NCBI GenBank assembly: GCA_028281665.1
Contig: JANQJK010000004.1
Span: 1 to 64,000, forward strand
Direction: 5' to 3'
Source of the DNA: Hyphococcus sp.
GTDB taxonomy: Bacteria; Pseudomonadota; Alphaproteobacteria; Caulobacterales; Parvularculaceae
DNA: 64,000 bases
Shown here one piece after another: positions 49,208 to 57,673 of this stretch. The position numbers and the translations under genes were made by a program. The notes under the pieces are model-generated. The model saw only the letters and a program-made list of their open reading frames with translations, did no database searches and was not told the origin of the DNA. Position 1 is the stretch's first letter. Each line of letters starts with the position of its first letter.

Positions 49208-51019
49208 ATGGACCGCAATCTCATCCTAGCCATCGCGCTCTCCATGGGCGTGCTTTTGTTCTGGGACATCTTCATTTCCGGCCCCCAGCGCGAGGCCTTT
49301 CGGGAGGCCCAGGAAACGGCGGAAGCGGAAGCAGCCGCCGACGAGGAAGGCGGGGAAATCGACGACGCCGACATAGCCGGACTTACCAGGAATACGGAGG
49401 CCGGGGCCGCGGTGTCTCTGGAAGAGGCGCTGGCCGAATCGTCGGGCCGCGTGCCGATCCGCACCGAAACCCTTGAAGGCTCCATCAACCTCACTGGCGG
49501 TCGCATCGACGATCTGACGCTGTTGCAGTATCGCGAGACCCTTGACGAGGACAGCGCTAATATTCGCCTTCTCAACCCGCGATCGGCCGCGCACGGACAT
49601 TACGTGCAACTGGGCTGGATCGCCGGCGGCGACGCCGCGCAGGCTGCCGTCTGGACCGTACCCAACGGAGCGGAGCTGACGCCGCAAACGCCCGTTACCA
49701 TGACCCGGCGTCAGGGCGATCTGGTTTTCGAGAAAACGATTTCGATCGACGAGAACTACATGTTCGAGGTCGACCAGACCGTGCGCAACGAAGGGAGCGA
49801 CGCGTTGTTGCTGACGCCTTATGCGCTCGTCATCCAGCGCGGCATTCCCGAAGACTTTACGAACTTCATGATCCTCCATGAGGGTCCGCTCGGCGTCATC
49901 GGCAAGGCGCTTTATGAGCGCAAGTACAAAAAGCTCGCCAAGAACCCCGACAAGAAAGTCGAGGAATCCGGCGCCGGCGGGTGGGTCGGCATCACCAACA
50001 AATACTGGCTCGCCGCTGCGGTGCCGCCGCAGGACGAAGAGATGAAGGCGACGCTCGATAATATTGGCAGCGCCGACGAACCAGTCTTTCGGGCGACATA
50101 CGCACTGCCGCAACGAGGCCTTGCCGCCGGCGAGACGCTGACGCTCACCTCTCACATTTTCGGCGGGCCGAAAGACGTTGATATCCTGCAATCCTACGAG
50201 GCGAAACCGGAAGACGGCGGCCTTGGGGTTTACGACTTCGACAAGGCGGTCGACTGGGGCCATCTCTTCATCCTGACGCGCCCGATTTTCTATACGCTCA
50301 ATTTCTTCGGCGATCTCACGGGTAATTTCGGCGTCGCGATTTTGATCCTGACCCTGATCGTCAAGGGCCTTCTCTTCCCGATCGCCAATAAGGGCTTTGA
50401 GTCCATGGCGAAGATGAAAAAATTGCAGCCGGAAGTTGAAGCCTTGCGTAAGCGTTATCCTGACGACCGCATGAAGATGCAGCAGGAGATGATGGCGCTC
50501 TACAAGAAAGAGAAAATGAATCCGCTCGCAGGGTGCCTGCCGATTCTGATTCAGATGCCGATTTTCTACGCGCTTTACAAAACGCTGTTCGTGACTCTCG
50601 AAATGCGTCACGAGCCGTTTATTTTCTGGATCAAGGATTTGTCGGCGCCCGATCCGACGACGATTTTCAATCTCTTTGGCATCCTGCCGTTCGACCCGAC
50701 GGCGGCGCCGGTTGTCGGCGCATTTCTCGGCATCGGCGTTCTGCCGATCCTCATGGGCGTTTCCATGTGGTTCCAGACAAAGCTGAACCCGCCGCCCACC
50801 GATCCGGTCCAGGCGCAGGTTTTCGCCATGCTGCCATTTGTCTTTGTCTTTATTTTCGCGCCGTTTGCTGCGGGCCTTGTGCTTTACTGGTTCTGGAACA
50901 CCTTCCTCGGCATCCTCCAGCAGATGCTGATCATGAAAAAGAACGGCGTCGAAGTGGACTGGGGCGAGCGCCTGCCATTCATGAAGCCGAAGAAGAAGGC
51001 ACCGGCGCCGGGGGAGTGA
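49208..51019 (+). CDS. yidC: membrane protein insertase YidC
   Basis: A 603-aa inner-membrane insertase and foldase. N-terminal helix LILAIALSMGVLLFWDIFIS is followed by a large periplasmic beta-domain (about 60-350) and the conserved core. That core is FGVAILILTLIVKGLLFPIA with NKGFESMAKMKKLQPEVEAL, then KKEKMNPLAGCLPILIQMPI with FYALYKTLFVTLEMRHEPFI, and FAPFAAGLVLYWFWNTFLGI. The basic C-terminal tail (KPKKKAPAPGE) helps ribosome contact. It is third in the rpmH operon. Confidence 0.97.
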   Translation: MDRNLILAIALSMGVLLFWDIFISGPQREAFREAQETAEAEAAADEEGGEIDDADIAGLTRNTEAGAAVSLEEALAESSGRVPIRTETLEGSINLTGGRIDDLTLLQYRETLDEDSANIRLLNPRSAAHGHYVQLGWIAGGDAAQAAVWTVPNGAELTPQTPVTMTRRQGDLVFEKTISIDENYMFEVDQTVRNEGSDALLLTPYALVIQRGIPEDFTNFMILHEGPLGVIGKALYERKYKKLAKNPDKKVEESGAGGWVGITNKYWLAAAVPPQDEEMKATLDNIGSADEPVFRATYALPQRGLAAGETLTLTSHIFGGPKDVDILQSYEAKPEDGGLGVYDFDKAVDWGHLFILTRPIFYTLNFFGDLTGNFGVAILILTLIVKGLLFPIANKGFESMAKMKKLQPEVEALRKRYPDDRMKMQQEMMALYKKEKMNPLAGCLPILIQMPIFYALYKTLFVTLEMRHEPFIFWIKDLSAPDPTTIFNLFGILPFDPTAAPVVGAFLGIGVLPILMGVSMWFQTKLNPPPTDPVQAQVFAMLPFVFVFIFAPFAAGLVLYWFWNTFLGILQQMLIMKKNGVEVDWGERLPFMKPKKKAPAPGE

Positions 51020-51079
51020 TGTCGCCCCAAACGATGCGCGCACGCCTGTCGTGCTACAGAGTAACTCGTTCTCCGTTCT

Positions 51080-51151
51080 TCCCGGCGAAAGCCGGAATCC
51101 AGAGCGGCGCGCCTCAGCTTATACGTTTCTGGGCCCCGGCTTTCGCCGGGG
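51080..51151. repeat. paired inverted palindromic repeats between yidC and ysxC
   Basis: Two palindromic units face each other: TTCTTCCCGGCGAAAGCCGG... and ...CCGGCTTTCGCCGGGGACA, each with CCGGC/GCCGG arms. The loop between them is about 25 bp. The unit is of the same sequence type as the ends of the GIY-YIG unit at 51836-52217, but without the gene. Confidence 0.65.
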
Positions 51152-51175
51152 ACATCGGATCGTTAGGTTTGCGCG

Positions 51176-51814
51176 ATGGTTTCTGATGAATTTTCGCCAG
51201 CCGAAATCGAAGCCGGCCGCAAACTGTTCGCGCAGGAAGCGACCTTCATGCTCGGCGTCGTTAAACTCGACGACTTGCCTGACGAGGGGCCCGCGGAAGT
51301 TGCGTTCGCCGGCCGGTCAAATGTCGGCAAATCAACGCTGCTGAACGCGCTGACCAATCAGAGCGGTCTTGCGCGCGCATCCAACACGCCCGGCCGCACG
51401 CGGGAGATCAACTATTTCGATCTCGACCGGAAGCTGCGCCTCGTCGATCTGCCGGGCTATGGCTATGCGAAAGTCTCAAGAAAGGAATCGGAGGCGTGGA
51501 ATCGCCTGACCCGCGACTTTCTCCGGGGGCGCTCTGTGTTGCGTCGCGTTTGCGTCCTCGTCGATTCCCGGCACGGGCTGAAACCAGGCGACCATGAAAT
51601 CATGGATATGCTCGACGAGGCGGCGGTGAACTATCAGATCGTTCTGACCAAGACCGACAAGGTGAAGCCGACGGCGCTCAACATGCTGATCGAAAAAACG
51701 GCGCAGTCCATCGTAAAGCGCCCGGCCGCGCACCCGGTCGTGCGCGCAACGTCGTCGGAAAAGGGCGACGGCATCCCCGAGCTGCGCGCCGAACTCGCGG
51801 CGCTGGCGGAATAG
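51176..51814 (+). CDS. ysxC: ribosome biogenesis GTPase YsxC/EngB
   Basis: A 212-aa GTPase of large-subunit assembly. G1 is VAFAGRSNVGKSTLLNALTN, G2 NTPGRTREINYF, G3 RLVDLPGYGYAKVSRKE, G4 VLTKTDKVKP and G5 RATSSEKGDG. Length and motif spacing are normal. It is separated from yidC only by the palindromic repeat pair, so it is probably part of the same transcription unit. ATG 51176 opens the family's usual N-terminus. Confidence 0.95.
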   Translation: MVSDEFSPAEIEAGRKLFAQEATFMLGVVKLDDLPDEGPAEVAFAGRSNVGKSTLLNALTNQSGLARASNTPGRTREINYFDLDRKLRLVDLPGYGYAKVSRKESEAWNRLTRDFLRGRSVLRRVCVLVDSRHGLKPGDHEIMDMLDEAAVNYQIVLTKTDKVKPTALNMLIEKTAQSIVKRPAAHPVVRATSSEKGDGIPELRAELAALAE

Positions 51815-51835
51815 CTTTTTTTGATCAAAAAAAAT

Positions 51836-52217
51836 CCGCTCATCCCGGCGGAAGCCGGGATCTCGGGCGACAAACACTGCGGTCAAATCAACTCTTCAGC
51901 TAAATCATTCCAGCTTGGATTCATATTTTCTATCATTTCGATTTTCCACGCGCGCTTCCATTCCTTGATTTGCCGCTCGCGCGTGAAAGCGTTTTCGCGA
52001 GACTCGTGAACTTCGTACCATACAAGTCTCTCGCAATTATATTTGTCACTGAACCCGGGCAGGATATGTTCGCGATGCATCCACGCCCGTTTGTTTATGT
52101 CGTCGGTCATTCCCGTGTAAAGGACGCCATATTTTTTGTTTGTGACGATGTAGACGTAAAACGCCATTAATCTTCGCGCCTGCCTCATGAGATCCCGGCT
52201 TTCGCCGGGATGAGCGG
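51836..52217. mobile_element. GIY-YIG unit 1: nuclease gene between 29-bp inverted palindromic ends
   Basis: The left end (51836-51864, starting CCGCTCATCCCGGCGGAAGC) and the right end (52189-52217) are inverted copies matching at 28 of 29 bases. Each end is itself a palindrome (ATCCCGGC/GCCGGGAT). Between them lies only the GIY-YIG gene, so the unit is 382 bp. It sits between ysxC and the alanine symporter gene. Confidence 0.75.
51883..52167 (-). CDS. small GIY-YIG endonuclease (unit 1)
   Basis: A 94-aa protein that is only the GIY-YIG catalytic domain. FYVYIVTNKKYGVLYTGMTD gives the two Tyr strands. The catalytic Arg is probably in NKRAWMHRE. The metal-binding Glu is in FTRERQIKEWKRAWKIEMIE, and the conserved Asn is in NMNPSWNDLAEEL. 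The family is often annotated UPF0213 or excinuclease-like, with unknown targets. ATG 52167 removes seven residues that run into the terminal repeat. The gene is enclosed by inverted repeats and is about 40% identical by eye to the copy at 55590. Confidence 0.9.
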   Translation of the reverse strand: MAFYVYIVTNKKYGVLYTGMTDDINKRAWMHREHILPGFSDKYNCERLVWYEVHESRENAFTRERQIKEWKRAWKIEMIENMNPSWNDLAEELI

Positions 52218-52306
52218 AGAGAAAATATTAGCGCGAAATCCCGACGCCTGACACAACCAAAAACCCCCAAATCCTCCCGCATTCGGTGCGTGTATATGCA
52301 AGCCGA

Positions 52307-53725
52307 TCAGATTCCCTTCTTCGCCTCATACGCCTTCACATCTCGCCGCAGCTCCGGCAGCAACAGATAAAGCGCGATGATGTTCGGGATCGCCATGCCG
52401 AAGAGCATGGAGTCGATGAAGTTGAGGATTGCCGAGAGCGACACCGCTGCGCCCGTCGACAAGAGGAAGCAGAGCGTCAGCTTGAACACAATGTCGGTCG
52501 TGCGCGACGGTCCGAAGAGATAAGCGGCCGCCTGCGCGCCGTAGAAGGCCCAGCCCACAAGGGTTGAAAACGCGAACAATGCGGATGCTACGAGCAGGAG
52601 ATAGGGAAACCAGCCGAAGGCGCTTTCAAAGGCGGCGGACGTGATCTCGATGCCGACCACATCCGGATTGTAAAGGAACGGCTCGTAAACGCCCGTCACC
52701 ACGACGACGAGTCCCGTCAGCGTACAGACGACGACCGTGTCGATGAAGGGTTCGAGGAGGGCCACATAGCCCTCGGTCATCGGTTCTTTGGTGCGCACTT
52801 GCGCGTGTGCGATCGCGGCGGACCCGACGCCGGCCTCGCTGGAATAGGTTGCGCGCTTCATGCCGTTGATCAGCGCGCCCACAAGCCCGCCGCCGGCGGC
52901 GTCGAGGCCGAAGGCGCTTTCAAAGATTGTCTGAAGCGCCGCGGGGATTGCCGGGACATTGAGCGCAAGGATGATGAGCGCCGCCCCGACATAGAGAACG
53001 CCCATAGACGGGACGATGATGCGCATGGCGTTGCCGATGCGCTTGATGCCGCCGAGGATGATGATGGCGACGCCTGTCGCCATGATGATCCCGTATGTGA
53101 GGGGCGCTGAAACGCCGGTGACGTTGGCGAACTGCGCGTGAGACTGATTGACCTGAAAGACGCTGACCGAAGCGCCCATGGCCATGATGGCGAAGAAGAT
53201 TGCCGCGGCCTTGCCGAGGGTTTTCATACCGATGCGATTGAAAACCTCTTCTATGTAATACATCGGTCCGCCGAGAATGCGTCCGTCCGGCATGACCTTG
53301 CGATACTTCACGGCGAGAGAGCATTCGGCGAATTTCGCGGACATGCCGAAAAACCCGGCAAGGATCATCCAGAAAATTGCGCCGGGTCCGCCCAGCGCCA
53401 CGGCGACGGGCACCGAGGCGATATTGCCAAGCCCGACCGTGCCGGAGAGGGCGGCGGACAGCGCCTGAAAATGCGAAATGGCGCCCGGCGAATCGAAGTG
53501 CTTCTGCGGGTTCCAGATGAGGTTCCAGCCATGGGCGAAGCCGCGGATGTTCACGAAGCGATTGGCGAAGGTGAGGATCACCGCCGCCGCCATCAGCCAG
53601 ACGACAACGAGGGGAAGCGACACGCCGAAGACATCGACCGAGAAAAAGATAATCGACGACACCCAGTCGGAAACCGGCGTCAGCGTGTCGTTAATACGGT
53701 CGGCGAGGGAAGGATCGTCGGCCAC
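52307..53725 (-). CDS. alanine/glycine:cation symporter (AGCS family)
   Basis: A 472-aa Na+-coupled importer of alanine or glycine (AlsT/DagA type) with about ten membrane helices. The family signature is in GTVGLGNIASVPVAVALGGP followed by GAIFWMILAGFFGMSAKFAE. Other typical text is GGPMYYIEEVFNRIGMKTLG, ATYSSEAGVGSAAIAHAQVR, and TLVGWAFYGAQAAAYLFG. It is flanked on one side by a GIY-YIG unit and on the other by an empty repeat pair, so it is probably transcribed alone. Confidence 0.93.
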   Translation of the reverse strand: MADDPSLADRINDTLTPVSDWVSSIIFFSVDVFGVSLPLVVVWLMAAAVILTFANRFVNIRGFAHGWNLIWNPQKHFDSPGAISHFQALSAALSGTVGLGNIASVPVAVALGGPGAIFWMILAGFFGMSAKFAECSLAVKYRKVMPDGRILGGPMYYIEEVFNRIGMKTLGKAAAIFFAIMAMGASVSVFQVNQSHAQFANVTGVSAPLTYGIIMATGVAIIILGGIKRIGNAMRIIVPSMGVLYVGAALIILALNVPAIPAALQTIFESAFGLDAAGGGLVGALINGMKRATYSSEAGVGSAAIAHAQVRTKEPMTEGYVALLEPFIDTVVVCTLTGLVVVVTGVYEPFLYNPDVVGIEITSAAFESAFGWFPYLLLVASALFAFSTLVGWAFYGAQAAAYLFGPSRTTDIVFKLTLCFLLSTGAAVSLSAILNFIDSMLFGMAIPNIIALYLLLPELRRDVKAYEAKKGI

Positions 53726-53766
53726 AAAACCTGTCCATTATTCGGGGAGGGCCAGAAAGAAAGCAG

Positions 53767-53839
53767 TGTCATGCCCGGACTTGTTCCGGGCATCCAGTCT
53801 AAGCCGCTCTGGATTGCCAGGACAAGCCCGGCAATGACA
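53767..53839. repeat. empty inverted palindrome pair, unit-2 type
   Basis: TGTCATGCCCGGACTTGTTC... (53767-53796) and its inverted partner (53810-53839) are 30-bp palindromic units only 13 bp apart. They have the same ends as GIY-YIG unit 2 at 55544-55932 but contain no gene. This looks like a deletion or non-autonomous form. Confidence 0.75.
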
Positions 53840-53847
53840 GGAGAAAT

Positions 53848-55014
53848 TCAAAGCCCTGCAAGCGCCTGTTCGAGGTCAGACTTGAGATCGTCAAACGCCT
53901 CGACGCCCACTGACAGACGGACGAGCGCGTCGTCGACGCCGAGTTGCGCCCGTCTTTCCGGCGGGATCGATGCGTGGGTCATAATGCCGGGGTGCTCGAT
54001 GAGGCTTTCGACGCCGCCGAGGGACTCTGCCAGGGTGAAAAGATCGACCCGTTCGAGCATGGTCTTCGCCGCATCGAGGCCGCCCTTCAGGAAGATTGTG
54101 ATCATGCCGCCGAAGGCGTCCATCTGGCGCGCGGCGAGGGCATGACCGGGATGGGATTTGAGGCCCGGATAATTGACCCGCGCAATCGCCGGGTGCGCTT
54201 CCAGCCACTCGGCGAGGCCCATGGCGTTCTGCGACGATCGCTCAAGGCGCAGCGCCAGTGTCTTCAGTCCGCGCAAGGCAAGAAAGGAATCGAACGGTCC
54301 CTGTATGCCGCCCACGGAATTTTGCAGGAAGGCGAGGCGCTCGCCGAGGTCGTTGTCTTTAACGACAAGCACGCCGCCAATGACATCGGAATGACCGCCG
54401 AGATACTTGGTCGCCGAATGCATCACGATGTCGGCGCCGAAATCGAGCGGGCGCTGGCAGTAAGGCGAGGCGAATGTGTTGTCGCAGCCGACGAGAAGCC
54501 CGCGCGATTTTGCAATCTTCGATACCGCTTCGATGTCGACGATCTTCAACAGCGGGTTGGTGGGCGTTTCGATCCAGACCATCTTCGTTGCGTCGGTAAT
54601 GACGCGTTCGAGATTCTCCGGGTCGGTCAGGTCGACATAGGTGAACGACATTGCCGCGGAGTCTTTTCGCACGCGTTCGAACAGACGAAACGTGCCGCCA
54701 TAGACATCGTCCATGGCGACGATGTTCGACCCGGCGGGGAGTAACTCCAGCATGGTCGAGATCGCCGCCATACCGGAGGCGAAGGCAAAGCCACGCGTTC
54801 CGTTTTCGAGGTCGGCAATGCAGCGCTCATAGGCGTGGCGGGTCGGGTTTGCGCCGCGGGCGTAGACGAAGCCTTTGTGAACGCCGGGGCTTTCCTGGGC
54901 GTAGGTCGACGTCTGGTAGATCGGCTGCATGACGGCGCCGGTCGTCGGGTCGTGCTCCTGGCCGGCGTGGATGACGCGGGTGGCGAAGGCGGGTCGGTTT
55001 TTCTTGTCGTTCAT
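53848..55014 (-). CDS. cystathionine gamma-synthase/gamma-lyase family PLP enzyme
   Basis: A 388-aa Cys/Met-metabolism enzyme. The PLP lysine is in DIVMHSATKYLGGHSDVIGG, the phosphate-binding residues in GTRGFAFASGMAAISTMLEL, and the Tyr in PIYQTSTYAQESPG and GFVYARGANPTRHAYERC. ATG 55014 is chosen for its GGAAAG ribosome-binding site. Gene neighbours include cystathionine beta-synthase 1.3 kb upstream on the same strand, so a gamma-lyase completing reverse transsulfuration is the most likely role; gamma-synthase activity cannot be excluded. Confidence 0.9.
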   Translation of the reverse strand: MNDKKNRPAFATRVIHAGQEHDPTTGAVMQPIYQTSTYAQESPGVHKGFVYARGANPTRHAYERCIADLENGTRGFAFASGMAAISTMLELLPAGSNIVAMDDVYGGTFRLFERVRKDSAAMSFTYVDLTDPENLERVITDATKMVWIETPTNPLLKIVDIEAVSKIAKSRGLLVGCDNTFASPYCQRPLDFGADIVMHSATKYLGGHSDVIGGVLVVKDNDLGERLAFLQNSVGGIQGPFDSFLALRGLKTLALRLERSSQNAMGLAEWLEAHPAIARVNYPGLKSHPGHALAARQMDAFGGMITIFLKGGLDAAKTMLERVDLFTLAESLGGVESLIEHPGIMTHASIPPERRAQLGVDDALVRLSVGVEAFDDLKSDLEQALAGL

Positions 55015-55052
55015 GGCGACTTTCCAATTGGTGCGATGTTGCACGCGTCCTA

Positions 55053-55529
55053 TCACATCTCGCGGCGCAGTTTCACCAGCGCTTCGTCCAGGGCAGACAG
55101 GAAGCGCGAGCGATCCTCTTTGCGGAAGGGCGCCGGGCCGCCGAGATTGTCGCCCGTGGCGCCGGCGCGAAGGTCCGCCATGATGGCGCGGGTAGCGATC
55201 GACGCGCCGATGGAGTCGCCGGTAAACGGTTTGCCGTTGGGCGCGATGACGGTTGCGCTTGTTTTGAGCGCGCGGTCCGCCAGCAATATGTCTGCGGTAA
55301 TGACCACGGCGGTCGCGTCAGCGTTTTCCGCGATCCAGTCATCGGCGGCGTCCATCGCGTCGCCAACCACAATGCGGGAGATCAGTTCGTGATCGGGAAC
55401 GCGAATGCGCTGGTTGGCGACGATCACGACCGGCGTTTCGGTGCGGAAGGCGACCTTGTAGACTTCCTCCTTGACCGGACAGGCGTCTGCGTCGACGAGA
55501 ATGCGGATATCGTCTGTCTTTTGAATCAT
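55053..55529 (-). CDS. YaiI/YqxD (DUF188) family protein
   Basis: A 158-aa protein of unknown function with a PIN-like fold. Hallmarks are IRILVDADACPVKEEVYKVA, NQRIRVPDHELISRIVVGDA with DAADDWIAENADA, and VITADILLADRALKTSATVI; the Asp residues could bind metal. The end PFRKEDRSRFLSALDEAL is also typical. ATG 55529 is chosen because the upstream part of the frame is palindromic-repeat DNA. It lies 38 bp before the PLP-enzyme gene. Confidence 0.9.
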   Translation of the reverse strand: MIQKTDDIRILVDADACPVKEEVYKVAFRTETPVVIVANQRIRVPDHELISRIVVGDAMDAADDWIAENADATAVVITADILLADRALKTSATVIAPNGKPFTGDSIGASIATRAIMADLRAGATGDNLGGPAPFRKEDRSRFLSALDEALVKLRREM

Positions 55530-55543
55530 GTCATGACATACTC

Positions 55544-55932
55544 TGTCATTGCCGGGCTTGTCCCGGCAATCCATTGATCGCCGCTGACTTTAGAGAAACA
55601 AATCGTCATAAAGATCGCGCCACGTCGGGTTCATCTTCTCAATCTCGTTTATCTTCCACTGTCGCGGCCACTTTTTCATGGTTTTCTCGCGTTGAATCGC
55701 CACGGTGACATCATCGAAATTTTCGTACCAGACGAGCATCGACACACTATACCTTTTTGTGAATCCGTTATGGACGTGATTTTTGTGCTGCCAGATGCGT
55801 CCCGCAAGGTCGGACGTGACGCCGATATACAAAGTTCCATTTCGCCGGCTCGCCAGCATGTAAACAAAGTAATTGCGGTCCGGCATTGTTTGTTCGATTT
55901 TCTGGATTGCCGGAACAAGTCCGGCAATGACA
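55544..55932. mobile_element. GIY-YIG unit 2: nuclease gene between 30-bp inverted palindromic ends
   Basis: The left end (55544-55573, starting TGTCATTGCCGGGCTTGTCC) and the right end (55903-55932) are inverted copies matching at 28 of 30 bases. Each contains a TTGCCGG/CCGGCAA palindrome. The only content is the GIY-YIG gene, total 389 bp. The right end is four bases from the ArsC-like stop and the left end 14 bases from the YaiI start, so the unit fills the gap between two genes exactly. Confidence 0.78.
55590..55886 (-). CDS. small GIY-YIG endonuclease (unit 2)
   Basis: A 98-aa single-domain GIY-YIG protein. The Tyr strands are in YFVYMLASRRNGTLYIGVTS, Arg in DLAGRIWQHKN, Glu in AIQREKTMKKWPRQWKINEI and Asn in KMNPTWRDLYDDL. 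It has the same length, orientation and flanking inverted repeats as the copy at 51883, yet is only moderately similar (SVSMLVWYE against NCERLVWYE). The two units therefore did not arise by recent duplication of one another. Confidence 0.9.
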   Translation of the reverse strand: MPDRNYFVYMLASRRNGTLYIGVTSDLAGRIWQHKNHVHNGFTKRYSVSMLVWYENFDDVTVAIQREKTMKKWPRQWKINEIEKMNPTWRDLYDDLFL

Positions 55933-55936
55933 CCGG

Positions 55937-56284
55937 TTATGACCCCAGCACCACAGCCTGAACGTCTTTCGACCAGCCGGCGAAAACCTGCGTGGGGCCG
56001 TTTTCAATCACCGGCCGTTTGATCAGCGTCGAGTGCTCGGCCATCAGGGCTATGGCCTTTTTCTCGTTGACGCCGTCTTTCTCAGCGTCAGCGAGACCAC
56101 GCCAGGTCGTTGAGGATTTGTTGAGCAGCTTCTCCCAGCCGACAACCTTCGCCCATTTAGTAAGCTGCGCCTTCGTAACGCCGTCGGCGCGAACGTCTTT
56201 ATACGTGTATTCGACACCCGCTTCATCGAGCGCTTTGCGCGCCTTGCGGCAGGTGTCGCAGGTTTTGAGGCCGTAGAACTGCAT
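55937..56284 (-). CDS. Spx/ArsC-family (YffB-like) thioredoxin-fold protein
   Basis: A 115-aa protein of the arsenate-reductase-like superfamily. The active-site region is KTCDTCRKARKALDEAGVEY (CxxC), with the conserved Arg in TLIKRPVIENG. Lacking any ars genes nearby, it is more like YffB, a glutathione-dependent reductase candidate, than a true arsenate reductase. Its ATG follows directly on the stop codon of cystathionine beta-synthase (TAGATG), so the two are co-translated. Confidence 0.87.
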   Translation of the reverse strand: MQFYGLKTCDTCRKARKALDEAGVEYTYKDVRADGVTKAQLTKWAKVVGWEKLLNKSSTTWRGLADAEKDGVNEKKAIALMAEHSTLIKRPVIENGPTQVFAGWSKDVQAVVLGS

Positions 56285-57673
56285 CTACGCCACCTGCAAT
56301 CTCAGATAATTCAGCAAGTCGGTCCGCGTAATCAGACCCTCGAACTTTCCGTCGTCCAGCACTACGGCGACATGGCCCTTGGTGAAGATCGGGAGCAGGT
56401 CTTCCAGCTTGCGCGACGCCTCGACCGTTTCGACGCGATAGGTCATGGCGGATTTTACCGGGTCCTGGAACTTGTCTCGATTGCGCACGACGGCGAAGAG
56501 AAGGTCTTCTTCGTCTAACAGTCCTTCGACTTTTCCATCGCCGTCAAGAACCGGCAGTTGCGAGATGTCGTAAAGCTTCATCTTGCCGTAGGCCTGCATC
56601 AGCGTGTCGTCGGGTTTGACGGTCACGGTCGCGCGCTCGGAATGGCGCCGCGAAATCAGATCGGTGAGATCGCCCTTGGGCGGGCGTTTCAAGAACCCCT
56701 GATCATACATCCAGTAGTCGTTGAACATTTTTGAGAGGTACTTGTCGCCGCGATCGCAGACAAAGGCGACGACGCGTTTCGGCGCCGACTGCGTGCGGCA
56801 ATATTTAAGCGCCGCGGCGAGGATGGTGCCTGAAGACGATCCGCCCAGAATGCCTTCTTTTTTGAGAAGATCCCGCGCGGCCTCGAAGCTTTCCTTGTCC
56901 GATATCGCATAAGCTTTCTTGACGTGAGAGAGATCGGCGATGTCGGGAATAAAGTCCTCGCCAATCCCTTCGACGAGCCATGACCCGAGTTCGTTCGGAA
57001 TCTTGCCGGTATTCACATAGTCGGTGAGGATCGAACCCTTGGGGTCCGCGAGAATGATGTCCGTATCCGGAGAATTTTCCTTGTAGAAGCGCGACAGCCC
57101 CGTGATCGTCCCCGCCGATCCGACGCCGCAGACGATGGCGTCCACCTTGCCGTCAAGCTGGCCGAGAATTTCCGGGCCCGTCGATTCCACATGGGCTTTC
57201 GGGTTCGCGGCGTTGCCGAACTGATTGACGTAAAAGGCGCCGGTTTCCTCGGCGATCTTTTCGGCCATATCCTGGTAGTATTCCGGGTGCCCCTTGCCGA
57301 CATCGGAGCGGGTCAGGCGCACATCGGCGCCCAGCGCCTTCAGGTGGAAAATCTTTTCCTGCGCCATCTTGTCGGGCACGACGATGATGGTCTTGTAGCC
57401 TTTCTGCGCGGCCACCAGCGCCAGGGCGAGGCCGGTATTGCCGGCTGTCGCTTCGATGATCGTGCCGCCTGGCTTCAGCTTGCCTTCCTTTTCCGCCGCT
57501 TCGATCATGGCGACGCCGATTCGGTCCTTGATCGAGCCGCCCGGATTGTTGGCTTCAAGTTTCAGAAAAAGTTCGCACGGTCCGGTGTCGATGTTCGAGA
57601 CCTTGACGATTGGCGTTTTGCCAATGCCTTCGAGAACATTGTCATAGACGGGGCCGTAGGGTGTATCCTTCAT
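56285..57673 (-). CDS. cystathionine beta-synthase with two CBS domains
   Basis: A 462-aa PLP enzyme joining serine (or O-acetylserine) and homocysteine to cystathionine. ATG 57673 is used. The PLP lysine is in ANNPGGSIKDRIGVAMIEAA, the substrate loop in ATAGNTGLALALVAAQKGYK, and the PLP phosphate loop in VCGVGSAGTITGLSRF. GGSSSGTILAAALKY is also present. The C-terminal 120 residues are a CBS-domain pair (ISQLPVLDGDGKVEGLLDEE, GHVAVVLDDGKFEGLITRTD) that may bind adenosyl ligands. With the PLP lyase downstream it supports cysteine formation from methionine. Confidence 0.92.
   Translation of the reverse strand: MKDTPYGPVYDNVLEGIGKTPIVKVSNIDTGPCELFLKLEANNPGGSIKDRIGVAMIEAAEKEGKLKPGGTIIEATAGNTGLALALVAAQKGYKTIIVVPDKMAQEKIFHLKALGADVRLTRSDVGKGHPEYYQDMAEKIAEETGAFYVNQFGNAANPKAHVESTGPEILGQLDGKVDAIVCGVGSAGTITGLSRFYKENSPDTDIILADPKGSILTDYVNTGKIPNELGSWLVEGIGEDFIPDIADLSHVKKAYAISDKESFEAARDLLKKEGILGGSSSGTILAAALKYCRTQSAPKRVVAFVCDRGDKYLSKMFNDYWMYDQGFLKRPPKGDLTDLISRRHSERATVTVKPDDTLMQAYGKMKLYDISQLPVLDGDGKVEGLLDEEDLLFAVVRNRDKFQDPVKSAMTYRVETVEASRKLEDLLPIFTKGHVAVVLDDGKFEGLITRTDLLNYLRLQVA

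What the first reader, a model, noticed from the sequence alone, without database searches (positions are those of the whole stretch)
51836..52217. GIY-YIG nuclease gene enclosed by 29-bp inverted palindromes: candidate minimal mobile unit
A 94-aa nuclease gene is bracketed by ends that match at 28/29 bases in inverted orientation, and each end is itself a hairpin. The whole unit is 382 bp and fills the gap after ysxC. This recalls REP sequences mobilised by RAYT transposases, but with a GIY-YIG nuclease as the only protein. I do not recall a described mobile element of this build, though I cannot search.
Basis: partly seen in the sequence, partly recalled or inferred. Interest (0 to 1): 0.85.

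Follow-up and report, generated by a model that had tools for sequence, protein, structure and literature searches.

The report
Nuclease gene bracketed by REP palindromes
A tiny nuclease gene sits between two copies of a short hairpin-forming repeat, and the same build recurs at unrelated places in many bacteria, so it looks like a minimal mobile unit and a candidate for the missing enzyme behind a widespread family of bacterial repeats.

Summary
In detail: 28/29-bp inverted palindromes bracket a 94-aa GIY-YIG gene at 51836-52217. The ends are a dispersed repeat of CGTC-REP geometry (stem 8, loop 4, outward tag, here the variant CGCTC). The host genome holds 65 near-matches, against 0 for a reversed control. 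A second unit lies at 55544-55932.

The build is general. Inverted arms scoring >=15 flank 116 of 150 relatives, against 0 of 1200 random positions; for named loci 66 of 79, against 13 of 877 other ORFs. In one genus, homologous ~380-bp units sit at five unrelated sites, with homology to the reference unit ending exactly at the REP tags in three comparisons, and orthologous gaps lack them. REP type follows nuclease clade rather than host genome. RAYT/IS200 transposases are undetected in 17 of 24 nuclease-bearing genomes, the host included.

Best reading: a REPtron-like mobile unit with a GIY-YIG nuclease in place of RAYT. Di Nocera et al. [quoted passage not shown] That the nuclease drives movement is inferred; no exact-edged empty site was found.

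The parts
51836..52217 (.). whole unit: REP - GIY-YIG gene - inverted REP (382 bp)
51836..51864 (+). left REP, tag CGCTC outward, stem 8, loop 4
51883..52167 (-). GIY-YIG nuclease gene, 94 aa
   Evidence: PF01541 E 3.4e-13; model pLDDT 95.8
52189..52217 (-). right REP, inverted, tag outward
55544..55573 (+). left REP of a second unit (stem 9, loop 5)
55599..55871 (-). second GIY-YIG nuclease gene (matched part), 42% identical to the first
55903..55932 (-). right REP of the second unit
53767..53839 (.). gene-less REP pair, tags outward: 53767-53796 (+) and 53810-53839 (-), related to the second unit's REP
51074..51098 (+). related REP upstream of ysxC (a second palindrome is visible by eye near 51130-51160)

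Best explanation
The unit is a minimal mobile element built like a REPtron: two CGTC-type REPs, tags outward, around one gene. Here the gene is a small SLX1/UPF0213-like GIY-YIG nuclease instead of a RAYT. SHOWN by sequence: homologous units with ends at the REP tags at unrelated sites in congeners; patchy, multi-copy distribution; gene-less REP pairs with the same outward orientation; REP type that follows nuclease clade. INFERRED: the nuclease recognises the hairpin and tag of its own REP, exposed as a hairpin or cruciform, and cuts there. That break lets the unit, and in trans the gene-less REP pairs, be copied or excised to new sites with host repair. GIY-YIG enzymes hydrolyse DNA (recalled) and no clear target duplication is seen, so movement is probably repair-dependent: either REPtron-like hairpin processing or homing into existing REPs. 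I cannot tell these apart.
For: Inverted arms in both flanks: 116/150 vs 0/1200 random positions; 66/79 vs 13/877 other ORFs in the same loci; longest ORF, taken as UvrC, 0 of 15. In comparisons of L184 with L260, L261 and L263 the homology is exactly tag to tag; other pairs run up to about 5 nt beyond, and L262 and L264 match over a shorter stretch. Flanks are unrelated except that L263 and L264 share a site and one 28-nt match L184/L264. Orthologous gaps lack the unit. Within one genus, nuclease groups carry their own REP types. Same-genome paralogues with normalised score <0.6 share a REP in 0 of 20 pairs (2 of 7 at 0.6-0.7, 2 of 3 above); pairs >=0.7 coded as different families share it in 67% of 141 (each named locus was coded as its own family, so many of these are congeners). 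REP labels need 20 changes on the nuclease tree vs mean 51, minimum 44, in 100 shuffles. The variant tag CGCTC groups nucleases (3 of 5000 permutations as high; host relatedness not removed). REP-rich genomes carry the nuclease: 11/15 vs 15/56, Fisher p 0.0018. Own-genome REP pairs within 400 bp: 21 tag-outward (one is this unit), 2 inward, 1 direct. Y1 transposases undetected in 17 of 24 nuclease-bearing genomes (a 25th genome searched, G442, has none but is not known to carry the nuclease). Twelve columns are invariant in 75 rows, among them Y17, R27 and E64 (that these are catalytic is recalled).
Against: No exact-edged empty site: at the L184 site about 7-22 nt stay unaligned and the right anchor is a motif that recurs in that genus. 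Target duplication: 51 of 72 units have none, with a small excess of 2-nt (9 vs 3.7 expected) and 4-nt (2 vs 0.4) matches, so neither shown nor excluded. 4 of 15 REP-rich genomes lack a detected nuclease, among them G081 with 100 copies and 100% completeness, and 15 of 26 nuclease genomes have few REPs of the one type searched. For L010 the nearest REPs are in direct orientation and the inverted match lies 163 nt away. 34 of 150 loci score below 15. Of six plasmid loci scored later, two (L195, L196) are not bracketed. REP/nuclease concordance is partly confounded by host relatedness. No biochemical data.
Confidence: 0.68

Rival explanations
1. Homing variant: the nuclease is a homing endonuclease whose target is the REP or REP pair itself. 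It cuts gene-less REP pairs, and gene conversion copies the gene between the two REPs.
For: Same outward geometry in gene-less pairs and in units; no clear target duplication; two Sphingobium orthologues without the gene carry a double-tagged palindrome at the site; sub-threshold TIGR01453 intron-endonuclease matches.
Against: In the L184-site and L263-site stretches read (9 loci) no REP of the unit's own type was found. The double-tagged palindrome also occurs in L313, a different site and genus, so it is not a specific precursor.
Confidence: 0.25
2. Ordinary host nuclease in REP-rich intergenic DNA: the REPs are terminators or landed around it by chance, and the nuclease has no role in REP spread.
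For: REPs are common in intergenic DNA; a repair role has been proposed for COG2827 proteins (PMC1839093, passages); 34 of 150 relatives score below 15.
Against: Other ORFs in the same loci 13/877; UvrC-length ORFs 0/15. Units recur at unrelated sites with ends at the tags; 1-11 copies in 140 of 385 genomes.
Confidence: 0.12
3. Passenger: the REP-bounded unit is moved by another enzyme in trans (RAYT/IS200 or an unknown transposase), and the nuclease rides along or regulates.
For: GIY-YIG enzymes are not known as transposases (recalled). 7 of 25 genomes searched do have a Y1 transposase.
Against: No Y1 transposase detected in 17 of 24 nuclease-bearing genomes including the host; Di Nocera 2013 reports no RAYT flanked by CGTC units (section 17 part 2); REP type tracks the nuclease. 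Other transposase families were not searched.
Confidence: 0.12
4. Domesticated REP-control enzyme: the nuclease resolves cruciforms at REPs for the host's benefit, with flanking REPs as autoregulatory sites.
For: Nearest folds are UPF0213 and Slx1; one C. crescentus homologue has an SOS box (PMC1839093, passage).
Against: Patchy distribution, several divergent paralogues per genome, homologous units at unrelated sites.
Confidence: 0.1

Closest known systems
REPtron / RAYT with GTAG REPs (Nunvar 2010 PMC2817692, passages; Di Nocera 2013 PMC3733652, sections)
   Same: one gene between two inverted REPs, dispersed gene-less REP copies and pairs, REP type follows the enzyme
   Different: the enzyme is a GIY-YIG nuclease, not an HUH tyrosine transposase; REPs carry CGTC-type, not GTAG, tags
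CGTC-tagged REPs (Di Nocera 2013)
   Same: stem 8/loop 4 or stem 9/loop 5, outward CGTC/TGTC tag in most relatives, CCA-like tail, dimers, common in Alphaproteobacteria
   Different: that paper reports no dedicated transposase; this unit supplies a candidate. In the window's first unit the tag is CGCTC and the tail CTC
GIY-YIG homing endonucleases such as I-TevI (recalled; 1mk0)
   Same: GIY-YIG fold and a possible break-and-repair spread
   Different: no intron or intein seen and no room for a separate DNA-binding domain in 94 aa; bounded by REPs
SLX1 / UPF0213 (COG2827) nucleases
   Different: no zinc-finger domain or SLX4 partner in the unit; here linked to REPs
REPINs / MITEs
   Same: gene-less inverted REP pairs
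   Different: the candidate partner enzyme is not a RAYT or a DDE transposase

Membership tests
CGTC-tagged REP | 8-9 bp stem, 4-5 nt loop | tested here: met
   8/4 for both ends, 9/5 for the second unit's left REP
CGTC-tagged REP | CGTC (or TGTC/CCTC) tag and CCA-like tail | tested here: inconclusive
   CGCTC tag and CTC tail at 51836; TGTC tag and CCA tail at 55544; CGTC/TGTC in most relatives whose arms were read
CGTC-tagged REP | dispersed, multi-copy, often dimers | tested here: met
   65 matches, 21 tag-outward pairs within 400 bp, one of them this unit
REPtron (RAYT) | gene flanked by two inverted REPs | tested here: met
REPtron (RAYT) | encodes a Y1 (HUH) REP-associated tyrosine transposase | tested here: not met
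   the protein is GIY-YIG; no PF01797 match in the host genome
GIY-YIG nuclease | GIY-YIG domain with conserved Tyr, Arg, Glu | tested here: met
   residue roles recalled
GIY-YIG nuclease | DNA cleavage | not testable with these tools
   needs purified protein
Insertion sequence | target site duplication | tested here: inconclusive
   72 units with both tags located: 51 none, 9 of 2 nt (3.7 expected), 2 of 4 nt (0.4 expected)
Insertion sequence | same element at different sites, absent from orthologous sites | tested here: met
   edges of the empty sites not exact
SLX1/UPF0213 | URI (GIY-YIG) fold of that kind | tested here: inconclusive

The most novel reading that the evidence does not exclude
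Small GIY-YIG nucleases are the long-missing dedicated mobility enzymes of CGTC REPs, and other small GIY-YIG genes (such as L012) do the same for a second palindrome type (CCTTCATCCTGAG...GAAGGA). Bacteria would then have two unrelated enzyme classes, HUH and GIY-YIG, that independently evolved REP-based selfish systems, with the GIY-YIG one common in Alphaproteobacteria and present in several other phyla.
Probability: 0.5. Interest if true: 0.92.

Novelty: new variant of a known kind. Interest (0 to 1): 0.84.

Why it matters
CGTC REPs occur in all alphaproteobacterial orders and in five phyla (Di Nocera 2013, section 6), and that paper left their mover unknown. A nuclease that brackets itself with the REP it may act on turns this open question into a simple cleavage assay. 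It would also be a very small candidate mobile unit (about 380 bp, one gene of about 94 codons) and a case of unrelated enzymes converging on the REPtron plan.

Tried and rejected
A loose scan of the window for any tagged hairpin gave 52 sites against 51 in the window read backwards: uninformative. Reading the Sphingobium double-tagged palindrome (L199, L200) as an excision scar: weakened, since the same kind of palindrome stands at an unrelated site in L313. The ysxC site as a precise empty-site test: only L094 keeps synteny (by eye), and it has almost no intergenic DNA. Rhizobium tumorigenes plasmids: the 8 records covering the site all carry the nuclease, and the two loci scored are not bracketed (L195, L196); they showed a REP-dimer polymorphism instead. 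Rhizobium CIAT894 and Shinella sites: gene absent in relatives listed, but the gaps are too diverged for edges. Rfam: no match in window 51000-56500. NCBIfam: only sub-threshold matches for 4 proteins. Structure comparison: no transposase among the rows shown; that absence is not evidence. My first UvrC control was invalid, because those genes ran off the fetched loci; it was redone with longer stretches: 16 fetched, 15 with full flanks, 0 at score 13 or more; the longest ORF was taken as UvrC without checking each.

Literature: searches listed no paper that I could see linking GIY-YIG nucleases to REPs. The library holds only CC-licensed PMC papers and no preprints, so this does not prove novelty. 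Seen: PMC3733652 (abstract, sections 6 and 14, section 17 part 2, passages); PMC12306157 (abstract, passages); PMC6006769, PMC1839093, PMC2817692, PMC10969869, PMC7017083, PMC5082802 (passages); all others as listings with the start of the abstract.

Rows dropped before counts: L082 and L128 (flank under 150 nt); 1 of 80; loci with arms under 15 left out of the specificity tests (124 of 161 kept), and 72 of these had both tags located for the target-duplication test. L265, L267 and L269 fell out of the within-genus matrix for low arm score. The plasmid loci L193-L198 are not in the 150; scored later, 4 of 6 reach 15.

Full report
Observation. Arms 51835-51864 and 52189-52218 match at 29 of 30 in inverted orientation. 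Each end folds as a perfect 8-bp stem with a 4-nt loop. Between them lies a 94-aa ORF on the minus strand with a GIY-YIG domain (PF01541, E 3.4e-13).

The ends are a dispersed repeat. The host genome (3.35 Mb) holds 65 matches with up to three mismatches and none for the reversed pattern. Among neighbours within 400 bp, 21 pairs have tags outward (one is this unit), 2 inward and 1 direct; start-to-start distances cluster at 43-50 and 58-59 bp. The unit has the same outward geometry with a gene inside.

The host genome has five PF01541 hits: four small genes and one 646-aa frame, taken to be UvrC. All four small genes have inverted palindromes in their two flanks, of three types (scores 27.5, 17.5, 25.0; 16.0; sequences). 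L010 is the least tidy: its nearest REPs are in direct orientation and the inverted partner is 163 nt away. L011 is a second complete unit in the window, 55544-55932, whose REP pattern has 11 matches in the genome.

The build is general. With 3 own genes and 69 loci from unnamed alphaproteobacterial genomes this gave 152 loci, 150 usable. Inverted arms scoring 15 or more flank 116 of 150, against 0 of 1200 random positions in the same loci; at 13 or more, 125 of 150 against 14 of 1200. The unnamed-genome loci alone gave 47 of 68 usable at 15. Against other ORFs of 80 aa or more in the same named loci: 66 of 79 versus 13 of 877. Bracketed examples come, by record title, from Alpha-, Beta-, Gamma- and Deltaproteobacteria, Nitrospira(e), Planctomycetaceae, Tenacibaculum and Acidobacteriaceae; many are MAGs.

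Controls within GIY-YIG proteins. UvrC-length ORFs: 0 of 15 (the first version was invalid). Of the 24 other GIY-YIG loci, chosen from genomes with weaker hits plus L012, 12 reach 15. These 12 have a different palindrome style (often CCTTCATCCTGAG...GAAGGA), while five genes of 79-89 aa have none. That length split is post hoc and I made no tree of these genes.

Mobility. In a class sample 140 of 385 genomes carry the nuclease, with 1 to 11 copies. In the genus of G281 (40 genomes) the 380-bp unit of L184 recurs in five congeners away from the orthologous gap. Compared with L184, the homology of L260, L261 and L263 runs exactly from tag to tag. Other pairs overrun by up to about 5 nt, and L262 and L264 match over a shorter stretch. 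The flanks do not match, except that L263 and L264 share a site and one 28-nt match joins L184 and L264; so six genomes give five sites. At the orthologous gap of L184 nine congeners were read, seven with both flanks located, none with a match to the unit. In G442 and G456 the flanks meet with about 7-22 unaligned nt, and the right anchor is a motif that recurs in the genus. At the L263 site, G426, G444 and G432 show no unit among the listed matches and no REP of that type in the stretches read. On Sphingobium plasmids the fnrL gap holds the unit in 3 and lacks it in 5 of the 8 loci aligned. Target duplications are not clear: 51 of 72 units have none, with a slight excess of 2-nt and 4-nt matches.

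Specificity. Nuclease similarity and REP similarity correlate (Mantel rho 0.24; largest of 999 permutations 0.16). Host relatedness confounds this, so further tests were made. Same-genome paralogues with score below 0.6 share a REP in 0 of 20 pairs (2 of 7 at 0.6-0.7, 2 of 3 above), while nucleases scoring 0.7 or more in genomes coded as different families share it in 67% of 141 pairs (each named locus was coded as its own family, so many are congeners). Within one genus, nuclease groups carry distinct REP types (10 loci). REP labels fit the nuclease tree far better than shuffles (20 changes versus a minimum of 44 in 100). The variant tag CGCTC of the window's REP marks a nuclease group of 8 loci (3 of 5000 permutations).

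Co-occurrence and rivals. In 71 genomes, one per family label, 11 of 15 REP-rich genomes and 15 of 56 others carry the nuclease (Fisher p 0.0018). The pattern covers one REP type only; G081, complete and with 100 copies, lacks a detected nuclease. Y1 transposases (RAYT/IS200) are undetected in 17 of 24 nuclease-bearing genomes, including the host, in line with PMC6006769 (passage), which says that Alphaproteobacteria have none or few.

Reading. Nunvar et al. 2010 describe RAYT genes as always flanked by two inverted REPs (abstract passage). Di Nocera et al. 2013 describe CGTC REPs with the same stem and loop sizes and state that they 'apparently lack a dedicated transposase' (abstract; section 17). 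The units here have the REPtron plan with a GIY-YIG nuclease in the enzyme's place. That the nuclease moves the unit is inferred; a cleavage assay would decide.

Noticed in passing
window 55544-55932: A second complete REP-nuclease-REP unit with a different REP type, 3.3 kb from the first.
   Followed up: yes
L012; L284-L305 (part): Other small GIY-YIG genes flanked by another palindrome style (often CCTTCATCCTGAG...GAAGGA): 12 of 24 non-UvrC loci score 15 or more.
   Followed up: partly
L199, L200, L313: Symmetrical double-tagged palindromes (CGTCACCCCGGG...CCCGGGGTGACG, L200 with mismatches); L199 and L200 stand at a site where relatives carry the nuclease unit, L313 at an unrelated site.
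   Followed up: partly
L184 and L263/L264 sites: Two unrelated unit sites in genus g213 lie beside the motif TGTAGGAAAG, which recurs in that genus; possible insertion hot spot.
   Followed up: no
G161 (L129, L153-L160): One genome with 11 matches to the nuclease profile; the 9 fetched have varied flanks, several without clear inverted arms.
   Followed up: partly
L195, L309, L310: Rhizobium plasmids: about 150-bp REP dimers with a conserved structured spacer, one copy polymorphic between strains.
   Followed up: no
PMC1839093 passage: Caulobacter crescentus has three COG2827 genes, one (CC3518) with an SOS box, so some of these nucleases may be damage-induced.
   Followed up: no
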